DNA of 64,000 bases. It comes from Acetobacteraceae bacterium (lineage in GTDB: Bacteria > Pseudomonadota > Alphaproteobacteria > Acetobacterales > Acetobacteraceae). The position numbers and the translations under genes were made by a program. Position 1 is the stretch's first letter, and every line of letters starts with the position of its first letter. The notes below the pieces were generated by a model. That model was given only the letters and a program-made list of their open reading frames with translations, had not been told where the DNA came from and ran no database searches. The stretch covers positions 1-64,000 of the forward strand of contig JASHOF010000156.1 of the NCBI GenBank assembly GCA_030041255.1. The letters run 5' to 3'. This document shows positions 59,810 to 63,062 of this stretch, piece after piece.

Positions 59810-61300
59810 TCAGGCACGGCCGTAGCTGTCTTCGAGGCGGACGATATCGTCCTCTCCGAGATAGGCGCCGGATTGCACCTCGATCAAGGCCATCGGGATG
59901 CGACCCGGGTTCTCCATGCGGTGCACGGCGCCGAGCGGGATGTAGATGCTTTCGTTTTCGCTGAGCAGTTGCTGCTTTTCGCCGACGGTGACGAGCGCGC
60001 TGCCGGCGACGACCGTCCAGTGCTCGGCGCGATGGAAGTGCTTCTGCAGGCTGAGAATGCCGCCGGGGTTGACGACGATGCGCTTGACCTGGAAGCGCTC
60101 TCCCATGAGCAGGCTTTCGTAGTAGCCCCAGGGCCGGACGACGCGCGTGTGAGTGGTCGCTTCCGGCCGCTGAGCGGCGCGCAGACGGTCCACGACGGCT
60201 TTCACCTGCTGCGCCTGATCGCGATGGAGGGCGAGGACCGCATCGTCGGTGACGATGACGACGACATCGGAAAGCCCGACCACGGCGGTCAGCCTTCCCT
60301 CGCTTCGGACATAGCAATTGGCTGCCGATTCCAGGAGGACATCGCCGAGTGCGACGTTTCCCGCGGCATCCTTCGACTTGAGTTGCCAGAGCGCGTGCCA
60401 GTTTCCGACGTCCGACCAGCCGAGATCCGCGGGCACGACGGCGGCCCGGCGGGTGCGCTCGGCGAGCGCGAAGTCGAGGCTGATAGAGGGGGCGGCACGG
60501 AACGCCTCGGGGCCGAGACGGATGAAGTCGGGATCATTGCGGCGGGTCTCGACCGCGCGACGAGCGGCGGCCAGAACTGCCGGCGCGTGCAGAGCCAGCT
60601 CTTCGAGGAGCGTCGCTGCGGTGAAGACGAACATCCCAGAGTTCCAGAGGAACCGTCCGGAAGCGAAGAGCCCGGCTGCGGTTTCACCGTCCGGCTTCTC
60701 GATGAAGCGGGCGACGCGCTGGACGCCCGGTGCCTCCGGCAGCCCGGCGCCGGGCTCAATCCAGCCATAGCCGGTTTCGGGTGCGGTCGGACGCATGCCG
60801 AAGGTGACGATCGAGCCCGCGCGCGCTGCCGGAAGTGCCGCCGCGAGCGCGCGGGCGAGGGCAGCCGCATCAGCGATCGCGGCGTCTGCGGCCATCATCC
60901 AGAGGACCGAAGAAGCGTCCTGTTCCGCCACCAGAAGGGCTGCGACGGCGATCGCCGGGGCGGTATTGCGGCCCTCCGGCTCGAGGACGATCCGGGCGCC
61001 CTCGATTCCCGCGTCGCGCATCTGCTCGGCGATCAGGAAGCGATGCGCTTCGTTGCAGACGATGATCGGTGGGACGAACTCCGGCCCGATGGCCCGGAGT
61101 GCCGTATCCTGGATCAGCGAGCGCTCCGAGACGAGGGGCCAGAGCTGCTTCGGATAATTCTCGCGCGAGAGAGGCCAGAGCCGCGTGCCGGCTCCGCCGG
61201 AAAGGATGACCGGCACGACGCGGCCGGCGCCGGACGGAGCGGAGACGAGAGCCAGCTCATCGGCTTCTGGTGCAAGGAGGTTCATCGCGGGTCCTGACAT
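59810..61300 (-). CDS. manC: Mannose-1-phosphate guanylyltransferase / mannose-6-phosphate isomerase
   Basis: A 496-residue bifunctional enzyme that makes GDP-mannose. The pyrophosphorylase domain has VVPVILSGGAGTRLWPLSRE and FIEKPDGETA; the C-terminal cupin PMI domain has RPWGYYESLLMGERFQVKRI, GGILSLQKHFHRAEHWTVV and ENESIYIPLGAVHRMENPG. The start at ATG 61300 or 61285 is uncertain. Supplies GDP-mannose to the glycosyltransferases encoded downstream (137-bp gap). Confidence 0.95.
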   Translation of the reverse strand: MSGPAMNLLAPEADELALVSAPSGAGRVVPVILSGGAGTRLWPLSRENYPKQLWPLVSERSLIQDTALRAIGPEFVPPIIVCNEAHRFLIAEQMRDAGIEGARIVLEPEGRNTAPAIAVAALLVAEQDASSVLWMMAADAAIADAAALARALAAALPAARAGSIVTFGMRPTAPETGYGWIEPGAGLPEAPGVQRVARFIEKPDGETAAGLFASGRFLWNSGMFVFTAATLLEELALHAPAVLAAARRAVETRRNDPDFIRLGPEAFRAAPSISLDFALAERTRRAAVVPADLGWSDVGNWHALWQLKSKDAAGNVALGDVLLESAANCYVRSEGRLTAVVGLSDVVVIVTDDAVLALHRDQAQQVKAVVDRLRAAQRPEATTHTRVVRPWGYYESLLMGERFQVKRIVVNPGGILSLQKHFHRAEHWTVVAGSALVTVGEKQQLLSENESIYIPLGAVHRMENPGRIPMALIEVQSGAYLGEDDIVRLEDSYGRA

Positions 61301-61438
61301 CTGAAATTCCCGTCTCCTCCCTTGCCGCCATTATGACGCCGCGCCGCGTCGGGGCAAAGGATTCAAGCGCGCGGGTGGGTTGACCCCCGTCGGCGGGTCG
61401 AGGAATCTGGGCTGGCAATGGCAACGGAAGGATCGGCC

Positions 61439-61657
61439 ATGGTGGTGGACATCGAATATTGCGGTCGGTGAGGATATGAACCGCGCGCTCTTGCGGCGCG
61501 GGCCTTGATCCTGGGAAAACTGCCGGACGCCGAGATCCAGCTCAGGAAGACCGGTGGCGGCGTATTCGAGATCACGGTGGACGGAAAGCTTCGCTTCTCG
61601 AAACGGGCGAGCGGACGCTTCCCATCGGACGAAGAGATTCTCGCAACCCTCGATTGA
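61439..61657 (+). CDS. SelW/Rdx-family selenoprotein (in-frame TGA = Sec)
   Basis: A 72-residue thioredoxin-like protein: MVVDIEYCGR-Sec-GYEPRALAARALI, then KLPDAEIQLRKTGGGVFEIT, then VDGKLRFSKRASGRFPSDEE, stop TGA at 61655. The whole Rdx/SelW pattern is present (VxIEYC-x-x-U/C near the start, EIxLxxxxGGVFEIxVDG, GRFPxxxEI near the end), and the reading frame continues unchanged through the TGA at 61469, which stands where selenocysteine (or Cys) of the redox CxxU motif belongs. The ATG at 61439 follows GGAAGGA by 7 bases. A SECIS-like hairpin starts right after the TGA. Read as a normal stop, the product would be a meaningless 10-mer. Predicted thiol-selenol redox protein of unknown substrate. 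Needs SelA/B/C/D encoded elsewhere. Confidence 0.87.
61472..61511 (+). promoter_or_regulatory. SECIS-like hairpin for UGA recoding
   Basis: Immediately 3' of the UGA: GGAT (61472-61475) pairs with ATCC (61508-61511), and CCGCGC (61481-61486) with GCGCGG (61496-61501), plus an inner GC/GC pair capped by TCTT with one bulged G. The apical loop lies about 18-24 bases from the UGA, the distance used by bacterial SelB-dependent SECIS elements. The exact fold has not been computed. Confidence 0.65.
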
Positions 61658-61868
61658 GATTCCGCCCGCTCCGGCGACTGGGCCGGGATGAGCGCGTTGC
61701 CTGCCGCGTGACGGCGGCTCGCCGATTTTTGCGTGTATGGGTTCGGGGCGGCGGAAGCGGCTCCGGGGGTGTGCTTGTTGTGCGTAAGTCCGGACTCGTA
61801 GGGCGGGGACGGCTTGCCCGGGCGGGATGGCGCTTTCATGATGCGCGCTTCCGAACAGAGGCCAAGCC

Positions 61869-63062
61869 ATGCCCGAATCCGTTCGTGCGAACGACCCGGC
61901 GGCGCGCATTCACGCCGCCGCCGGGCGGATTGCCCCAGAGCTCATCGCGATCCGGCGCGACATTCACGCCTACCCCGAACTTGCCTTCGAAGAGACCCGC
62001 ACCTCGGCACGGGTTGCCGCGGAGCTCGGCAGGCTCGGTATTTCCCACCGCACGGGTATCGGCCGAACCGGCGTGGTCGGGCTGATCGAAGGCGGGCGGC
62101 CAGGTCCGGTGCTGGCGATCCGCGCCGACATGGATGCCCTGCCGATGTCCGAGCGGACCGGCCTTCCTTTCGCGAGCCAGATTCCCGGAAGGATGCATGC
62201 GTGCGGGCACGACATCCACACCAGCACCCTGATCGGCGTCGCGGCCGTCCTCAAAGAGCTTGCGCCGCAGCTTGCCGGAAGCGTGAAGCTGGTCTTCCAG
62301 CCGGCCGAGGAGGCGCTGGGCGGGGCCGCCGCCATGCTGGCGGACGGGCTGCTCGAGTCGCCCAAGGTTTCGCTTGCGCTTGGCTTCCACAATCACCCGG
62401 ACCTGCCGGTCGGGCGGTTCGGTTATTGCCGCGGCGCCTGCCTTGCCGCCTCGGACCGCTTCGAGATCACCGTGCACGGGCGCTCCGGCCACGCCGCGCA
62501 TCCGGAGACGGCGATCGATCCGATCGTCGCGGCCGCCCATCTCATCACGGAGCTGCAGACGGTCGTTTCGCGCGAGATCGATCCCGTCCAGCCGGCGGTG
62601 GTGACGGTCGGCGCCATCCATGGCGGATCGGCGGTCAACATCATTCCGGACGAGGTCGTGTTCCGCGGCACCGTGCGCACCCTCGATGCCGGGGCAAGGC
62701 ACACCGCAGAAAGCGCGATCCGCCGCTTCTGCGAGGGAGCGGCGCACACTCTCAGGGTACGCTGCGAGCTTGAATATGCGCGCGGCGTGCCGGCACTCGT
62801 CAACGACGATGCCGTGCTCGAACGCACTGTCTCCGCCGTGCGGGCGCAGATGGGCGAAGTCGTCGAAGGAGGCAAGCCGAGCCTTGGCGGAGAGGATTTC
62901 GCGCTGATTGCCGAGCGGGTGCCGGCGTTCCAGCTTCGCATCGGCTCGGGCCAGCCGGGACGAGCCGACAAGCTGCACAATTCCGATTATCAGCCGGACG
63001 AGCGCTGCATTGCGCTGGGTGTCGAGGCGCTGTCGCGCGCGGCGCTCGAGCTTCTGTCCTGA
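61869..63062 (+). CDS. M20-family amidohydrolase (hippurate hydrolase/aminoacylase-like)
   Basis: A 397-residue metallopeptidase-type hydrolase. Motifs: IRRDIHAYPELAFEE, the ADMDALPMSE stretch, HACGHDIHTSTLIG with the metal-binding His and Asp, FQPAEEALGGAAAML with the catalytic Glu pair, and C-terminal SLGGEDFALIAERVPA. The dimerisation domain (about 185-295) includes VHGRSGHAAHPE. It cleaves N-acyl or amide bonds of amino acid derivatives; substrate unknown. Lies alone on the plus strand, following the selenoprotein gene by 211 bp. Confidence 0.92.
   Translation: MPESVRANDPAARIHAAAGRIAPELIAIRRDIHAYPELAFEETRTSARVAAELGRLGISHRTGIGRTGVVGLIEGGRPGPVLAIRADMDALPMSERTGLPFASQIPGRMHACGHDIHTSTLIGVAAVLKELAPQLAGSVKLVFQPAEEALGGAAAMLADGLLESPKVSLALGFHNHPDLPVGRFGYCRGACLAASDRFEITVHGRSGHAAHPETAIDPIVAAAHLITELQTVVSREIDPVQPAVVTVGAIHGGSAVNIIPDEVVFRGTVRTLDAGARHTAESAIRRFCEGAAHTLRVRCELEYARGVPALVNDDAVLERTVSAVRAQMGEVVEGGKPSLGGEDFALIAERVPAFQLRIGSGQPGRADKLHNSDYQPDERCIALGVEALSRAALELLS

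What the first reader, a model, noticed from the sequence alone, without database searches (positions are those of the whole stretch)
61439..61657. Hidden SelW/Rdx selenoprotein gene with UGA in the CxxU motif and a SECIS-like hairpin
Seen: a 73-codon frame (stop included) in which a TGA at 61469 falls exactly at the redox position of an otherwise intact Rdx/SelW protein, with a good ribosome site and a hairpin starting next to the TGA. Known: SelW-like Rdx proteins carry CxxU or CxxC, and bacterial SECIS elements sit directly 3' of the UGA. Inference: this is a genuine selenoprotein that standard gene callers skip, in an organism for which selenium use would be predicted.
Basis: partly seen in the sequence, partly recalled or inferred. 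Interest (0 to 1): 0.9.

Follow-up and report, generated by a model that had tools for sequence, protein, structure and literature searches.

The report
SelW-like selenoprotein gene with in-frame UGA
A small redox-protein gene that looks broken by a stop signal is very probably intact: the stop is read as selenocysteine, the selenium amino acid, in a bacterium that carries the complete selenocysteine machinery, although the RNA hairpin thought to trigger this lacks a base usually considered essential.

Summary
Confirmed. Window 61439-61657 encodes a 72-residue Rdx/SelW-like protein (Pfam Rdx 2e-18) with TGA at codon 11, the second redox position of CGRU. The genome has selA, selB and tRNA-Sec in one cluster, plus selD. 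Its single Rdx match is this gene. Homologues have TGA or a Cys codon there and nothing else. SelB accompanies TGA forms (8 of 10 and 34 of 38 genomes), not Cys forms (0 of 9 and 0 of 5). The frame after the TGA is under purifying selection.

The SECIS claim is weaker for this copy. Across relatives a hairpin here is conserved beyond synonymous-codon controls, with a loop G in 51 of 59 sequences. The window's loop (UCUU or CUUGC) lacks that G and fails the published bacterial rule; its fold energy is ordinary.

A new member of a known kind. Of interest: no selenium-type formate dehydrogenase was found in this genome or its sister, against a published generalisation for Alphaproteobacteria, and the SECIS loop is non-canonical.

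The parts
61426..61432 (+). Shine-Dalgarno-like GGAAGGA, 6 nt before the ATG
   Evidence: read in the sequence
61439..61657 (+). selW-like (Rdx family) coding sequence, 72 residues plus terminal TGA, read through one in-frame TGA
   Evidence: a start codon at this place is shared by most homologues with TGA
61460..61471 (+). redox motif C-G-R-U (TGC GGT CGG TGA)
   Evidence: C8 and position 11 invariant in 31 aligned sequences, all chosen as TGA forms
61469..61471 (+). UGA proposed to be read as selenocysteine (codon 11)
   Evidence: TGA in 10 of 19 relatives' loci and in 58 of the 63 genome-contig loci covering it, a Cys codon in the rest
61481..61501 (+). upper hairpin, SECIS candidate (8-bp stem with one bulge, loop UCUU; alternative register with loop CUUGC)
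   Evidence: folds; position conserved in relatives; loop fails the published G rule
61471..61512 (+). whole predicted stem-loop with weak lower stem starting at the last base of the TGA
   Evidence: folds
61655..61657 (+). terminal TGA stop of the same gene
   Evidence: relatives end at or near here with TGA, TAA or TAG
59810..61300 (-). divergent neighbour, mannose-1-phosphate guanylyltransferase-like frame (name recalled from its sequence, no family search run)
   Evidence: found beside the selW-like gene in 18 of 64 genome-contig loci
61869..63062 (+). downstream neighbour, M20 amidohydrolase-like frame (name recalled, no family search run)
   Evidence: found in 5 of 64 genome-contig loci

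Best explanation
The gene encodes a small thioredoxin-fold Rdx/SelW-like selenoprotein. Shown: the frame, the family, the UGA at the CxxU position, the complete Sec machinery in the genome, purifying selection after the UGA, and co-occurrence of the UGA form with SelB. Inferred: SelB carrying Sec-tRNA-Sec binds the hairpin just after the UGA and puts selenocysteine at residue 11; the CGRU pair then does thiol/selenol redox chemistry, as assumed for SelW-like proteins. Termination at the UGA presumably competes, so part of the product would be a 10-residue peptide.
For: Rdx domain across the UGA, E 2e-18; AlphaFold model mean pLDDT 97.1 matching SelW-related crystal structures, best 2fa8 E 1.1e-7, TMq 0.91. 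selA 3.1e-163, selB 1.9e-121 over 575 of 581 positions, tRNA-Sec 76.6 bits and ARAGORN tca, adjacent on contig C181; selD 7.1e-86. Codon 11: relatives 10 TGA and 9 TGC of 19; genome contigs 58 TGA, 5 Cys and 1 not covered of 64. selB over cut-off: UGA genomes 8 of 10 against Cys genomes 0 of 9; 34 of 38 against 0 of 5 (at least two genomes are in both sets); selA 8 of 10 against 0 of 9; Fisher p 0.0007, 0.0001 and 0.0007. dN/dS after the UGA 0.08 to 0.34 in six pairs. Hairpin pairs exceed synonymous resampling: 149 of 155 against mean 100.1, 145 of 168 against mean 126.8, 0 of 2000 each; with the best of 81 registers chosen anew each time, still above every one of 300 resamples.
Against: The window's loop has U, not G, at position 23 from the UGA and fails the bacterial SECIS rule; best rule-conforming hairpin only -2.0 kcal/mol. 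Position 17 is G, not U; a review says loss of U17 or G23 abolishes decoding. Folding energy after the UGA is not beyond synonymous shuffles: mean z -0.21 over 63 sequences, window -0.73. Within-column synonymous permutation gave no excess for the 28-sequence set that includes the window (348 of 2000 reached the observed value). Two of five genomes of the same genus (G001; G002, 77% complete) have no match, so the gene seems dispensable there. UGA genomes without a selB hit: 2 of 10 and 4 of 38. No expression data.
Confidence: 0.85

Rival explanations
1. The gene is a selenoprotein gene in early decay: the SECIS loop has lost its G in this genus, the UGA now mostly terminates, and the downstream frame is kept only by recent history.
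For: Loop G missing in the window and in the two other gene-bearing genomes of the genus, L021 and L022; G001 and G002 of the same genus have no match; SelB of this genome keeps its C-terminal end and the genus' formate dehydrogenase SECIS is canonical in G001 and G003, so the recogniser has not visibly changed.
Against: Against the 79%-identical relative dN/dS is 0.25 after the UGA, and SelW (79% identity) changes about as fast as its neighbours (78% and 83%). Three genomes with the altered loop keep the full frame. The loop G is also missing in L023, L046, L047, L050 and L054, which keep the frame.
Confidence: 0.1
2. The UGA is read through as an ordinary amino acid (near-cognate Trp, or Cys on tRNA-Sec) without selenium.
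For: Non-canonical hairpin loop.
Against: The UGA form tracks SelB and SelA and the Cys form does not. The window gene and many relatives end in UGA as a true stop, so UGA is not generally a sense codon.
Confidence: 0.04
3. Chance open frame or sequencing error.
For: None found.
Against: Two other genomes of the genus carry the same TGA and frame (96% and 79% identical; L021 and L022, which look to be the same genomes as L039 and L040); Rdx E 2e-18.
Confidence: 0.01

Closest known systems
Bacterial SelW-like selenoproteins (PF10262, CxxU) of the Sargasso Sea and GOS surveys and of the 2026 review list
   Same: CxxU motif, Rdx domain, UGA followed at once by a hairpin, Sec machinery in the genome (passages)
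   Different: Here in a genome whose nearest named relatives are Acetobacteraceae MAGs; the window's SECIS loop lacks the conserved G
Campylobacter jejuni SelW (ribosome profiling and peptides beyond the Sec codon, passages of PMC11955535)
   Same: Small unannotated SelW homologue with an in-frame UGA; the model NF041051 (SelTWH_Campy) is the best NCBIfam hit, E 1.7e-22
   Different: Scores 79.4 bits, below that model's cut-off of 88; no protein evidence here
Cys-type Rdx proteins of Proteobacteria (structure: Agrobacterium 2fa8)
   Same: Same fold, TMq 0.91
   Different: Mostly CTQC instead of CxxU, 30-43% identity in the 14 loci seen; none of their 14 genomes had selB over cut-off and none of the 9 tested had selA
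Eukaryotic Selenoprotein W (2npb) and MIEN1/C17orf37 (2ljk)
   Same: Similar by sequence, E 6.8e-4 and 2.4e-10, and by fold
   Different: Eukaryotic SECIS lies in the 3' UTR (passages of PMC1088965)

Membership tests
Rdx / SelT-SelW-SelH family | profile match over the curated cut-off | tested here: met
   PF10262 66.8 bits against 22.6; TIGR02174 60.9 against 34.2
Rdx / SelT-SelW-SelH family | CxxC or CxxU at the N-terminal redox site | tested here: met
   C8 and UGA11; both invariant in the 31 aligned TGA forms
Rdx / SelT-SelW-SelH family | thioredoxin-like fold | tested here: met
   model pLDDT 97.1; SelW-related structures at TMq about 0.9, thioredoxins weaker
Campylobacter-type SelW equivalog NF041051 | score over the curated cut-off of 88 bits | tested here: not met
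   79.4 bits
Bacterial selenoprotein | in-frame UGA aligned with Cys or Sec-UGA in homologues | tested here: met
   68 TGA and 14 Cys codons, no other, over the 19 relatives' loci and the 63 genome-contig loci that cover it; some genomes are in both sets
Bacterial selenoprotein | selA, selB, selC, selD in the genome | tested here: met
Bacterial selenoprotein | bSECIS: stem-loop 16-37 nt after UGA with G in the first two loop positions (rule quoted in passages of PMC13188914) | tested here: not met
   Spacing is met (17 or 18 nt) but the loop is UCUU or CUUGC; best conforming hairpin -2.0 kcal/mol. 51 of 59 distinct sequences have the loop G in the shared registers
Bacterial selenoprotein | selenium in the protein | not testable with these tools
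   needs 75Se labelling or mass spectrometry

The most novel reading that the evidence does not exclude
In this genus, SelB inserts selenocysteine through a SECIS hairpin without the loop G that is held to be essential, and the selW-like gene is the reason (perhaps the only one) for keeping selA-selB-selC in the window's species and its sister. No Sec-type formate dehydrogenase was found in either, while SelB's C-terminal domain looks unchanged, so recognition would have to rest on other features of the hairpin.
Probability: 0.3. Interest if true: 0.6.

Novelty: new member of a known kind. Interest (0 to 1): 0.42.

Why it matters
It adds a clear SelW-like selenoprotein to Acetobacteraceae and neighbouring Alphaproteobacteria, a class for which a 2006 survey named formate dehydrogenase as the only selenoprotein (passages of PMC1794560). 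My paper searches showed no paper naming SelW in this group, but supplementary tables could not be read. Six of the ten UGA-Rdx genomes among the 100 relatives had no Sec-type formate dehydrogenase hit. If the gene works with its altered loop, it gives a natural variant for testing what SelB really needs in a SECIS element.

Tried and rejected
Rfam on 61300-61900 at E up to 10: no match, uninformative because the hairpin is short. Minimum free energy as a SECIS test: no signal over synonymous shuffles in the Sec set (mean z -0.21, n 63) or the Cys set (-0.08, n 14); kept as evidence against. Rule-based SECIS scan with a G[GU] loop and -3 kcal/mol: Sec set 41 of 59 against a resample mean of 15.5 (max 28), but 8 of 14 Cys homologues pass too, so the rule separates poorly; the window fails it. 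Formate dehydrogenase as the expected selenoprotein: TIGR01591 gave 13 pieces in the own genome, none with a stop inside, and no listed match with a stop in 100 relatives at E 1e-100. The right family is TIGR01553, with one TGA in 17 of the 19 matching genomes and no match in G000 or G004 at E 1e-100. SelB divergence as the reason for the odd loop: against G001, identity is 76% for residues 1-340, 64% for 341-500 and 72% for 501-640, no sign of it. The script's motif found no SelB start in two of nine loci (G037, G042), which did not enter the comparison; G003 was cut by its contig end and entered for the first part only. Papers: Rhodopila + selenocysteine, none; selenoprotein + SelW + Alphaproteobacteria, only PMC1794560; selenocysteine + Acetobacteraceae, two, not opened. 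One alphaproteobacterium (Afipia) is listed with 3 known selenoprotein genes in a passage of PMC12013277, families not shown, so the 2006 generalisation may already be out of date. Other selenoprotein families in this genome were not searched, so 'only selenoprotein' is not shown.

Rows dropped: L019 and L020 (the window itself) and L085 (codon 11 not covered); near-duplicates before (63 Sec, 14 Cys left) and identical 45-mers before (59 left). The split of the 59 hairpins into two registers (28 and 31) was made after looking; the register-free control was run for that reason, with a different split (26 sequences with G-Y-E after the UGA, 33 others). The sequences are related, so the resampling controls overstate independence. 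For the selB test of named genomes I gave 43 of the 64 loci; the rest were duplicates of genomes already tested or were left out without looking. Some genomes are in both co-occurrence sets: G113 and G114 show the same selB coordinates as G037 and G055.

Full report
What is there. The frame at 61439-61657 is exactly as described: ATG at 61439, a Shine-Dalgarno-like GGAAGGA 6 nt before it, TGA at 61469-61471 as codon 11 and a terminal TGA at 61655. Read with the inner TGA as a residue, the 72-residue product matches Pfam Rdx at E 2e-18 and TIGR02174 at 1e-16, on both sides of the TGA. The TGA falls at the second redox position of C-G-R-U. An AlphaFold model from 31 aligned sequences has mean pLDDT 97.1 and resembles SelW-related crystal structures (2fa8, 2oka, 2obk; TMq about 0.91) and mouse SelW (2npb, TMq 0.75).

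Does the organism make selenocysteine? The window lies on contig C72 of a 4.35-Mb assembly rated 100% complete. That assembly has selA (3.1e-163), a selB matched over 575 of 581 positions (1.9e-121) and tRNA-Sec (Rfam 76.6 bits; ARAGORN anticodon tca) side by side on contig C181, and selD (7.1e-86) on C15. The single Rdx match in the genome is this gene, with one TGA inside. Its closest named relatives are MAGs labelled Acetobacteraceae.

What do relatives have at codon 11? Of 100 relative genomes (the window's own included) searched with the protein, 19 had a match: 10 with one in-frame TGA and 9 with TGC. Of 64 loci from genome contigs, 58 have TGA, 5 a Cys codon and 1 does not cover the position. 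No other codon was seen. The Cys forms are a more distant branch (mostly CTQC, 30-43% identity). SelB over the curated cut-off was present in 8 of 10 UGA genomes and 0 of 9 Cys genomes, and in 34 of 38 against 0 of 5 among 43 genomes reached through named loci; at least two genomes are in both sets. SelA was present in 8 of 10 against 0 of 9. One UGA genome (G070, 77% complete) had neither; G006 had selA only and G038 selB only. In the second set four UGA genomes (G104, G106, G128, G131) had no selB over cut-off; incomplete assembly is a likely but untested reason.

Selection on the frame. After the UGA, the window differs from six relatives with dN 0.02-0.26 and dS 0.05-3.2, dN/dS 0.08-0.34; the closest pair has only 4 differing codons, so its ratio (0.34) is imprecise. 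At the 79% relative the gene changes about as fast as its neighbours (78% and 83% identity).

The hairpin. The 60 nt from the UGA fold into a stem-loop at 61481-61501 with a weak lower stem. As an energy it is ordinary for such GC-rich coding DNA: 10 of 200 dinucleotide shuffles are as stable, and synonymous shuffling gives z -0.73 for the window and a mean of -0.21 over 63 sequences. Comparison says more. In 31 of 59 distinct sequences, mostly from other Alphaproteobacteria and further phyla, a 5-bp stem with the loop at nucleotides 25-29 from the UGA forms 149 of 155 pairs, against 100.1 +/- 4.7 with resampled synonymous codons (0 of 2000). In the other 28, with the window, the loop is one codon nearer (22-26) and 145 of 168 pairs form, against 126.8 +/- 3.9 (0 of 2000); however, permuting synonymous codons within columns removed the excess for this set (348 of 2000 reached it), not for the other (0 of 2000). 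With the best of 81 registers chosen anew for every resample, and a split by sequence alone (26 with G-Y-E after the UGA, 33 others), the observed sets still exceed all 300 resamples (110 against a maximum of 107; 157 against 123). The loop arginine codon is CGT in 19 of 19 sequences of the L-R group, against 6 of 53 in arginine columns outside codons 6, 8, 9 and 11, and 14 of 22 against 13 of 138 in the other group.

Where this copy departs. All 31 sequences of the first set and 20 of 28 of the second have G at the second loop position; the window, L021, L022, L023, L046, L047, L050 and L054 do not. The window's favoured loop is UCUU, or CUUGC in the shared register. The rule quoted in a 2026 review asks for G in the first two loop positions (passages of PMC13188914); a scan with that rule finds in the window only a hairpin of -2.0 kcal/mol, and none in L022 or L023. 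A 2021 review says U17 and G23, counted from the UGA, are SelB-binding sites and that loss of either abolishes decoding (passage of PMC8659212; I take it to concern E. coli fdhF); the window has G17 and U23. In the same genus, the Sec-type formate dehydrogenase genes of G001 and G003 have AGUCU at 22-26 and a bulged U17, so the genus uses the ordinary signal elsewhere. The SelB of this genome keeps a normal-looking C-terminal domain. I cannot explain the difference: other hairpin features may suffice, read-through may be weak, or the gene may be starting to decay.

Setting among known systems. SelW-like CxxU proteins are an established bacterial selenoprotein family: among the most abundant in the GOS marine data, 427 sequences (passages of PMC2398784), listed for 35 organisms in a 2016 survey of more than 5,200 (abstract start and passages of PMC5029168), and shown at the protein level in Campylobacter (passages of PMC11955535). 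A 2006 survey stated that formate dehydrogenase is the only selenoprotein of Sec-decoding Alphaproteobacteria (passages of PMC1794560). Here TIGR01553 found a one-TGA formate dehydrogenase in 17 of 100 relatives but none at E 1e-100 in G000 or its sister G004; of the ten UGA-Rdx genomes, six had none. I did not search other selenoprotein families in this genome.

Verdict. A genuine selenoprotein gene of a known family is by far the best reading (0.85). The residue itself, and how the odd loop works, need experiment.

Noticed in passing
L018 5211-5306 and 5250-7247 (contig C181 of the window's genome): tRNA-Sec overlaps the 3' end of the selB frame by 57 nt, so SelB's tail would be a translation of part of the tRNA; similar to the nested selC reported for Alphaproteobacteria (passages of PMC8124441)..
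   Followed up: partly
window 59810-61300: The selW-like gene sits divergently beside a mannose-1-phosphate guanylyltransferase-like gene in 18 of 64 genome-contig loci; a shared function is not obvious.
   Followed up: partly
L122 and L123 (G001, G003, same genus): Sec-type formate dehydrogenase genes with a canonical SECIS (AGUCU, bulged U17); no match in the window's genome and G004 at E 1e-100.
   Followed up: partly
relatives set: Of 25 genomes with SelB at E 1e-80, 8 have the UGA Rdx gene, 13 a one-TGA formate dehydrogenase (TIGR01553), 3 both and 7 neither; what the 7 use selenocysteine for was not looked at.
   Followed up: no
window 61331-61909 and 61363-61839, - strand: Two antisense open frames of 192 and 158 aa cover the selW-like gene and could mislead a gene caller.
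   Followed up: no
L051 (Rhodopila globiformis DSM 161): A named strain carries the UGA form and SelB, which makes it a convenient test organism.
   Followed up: no
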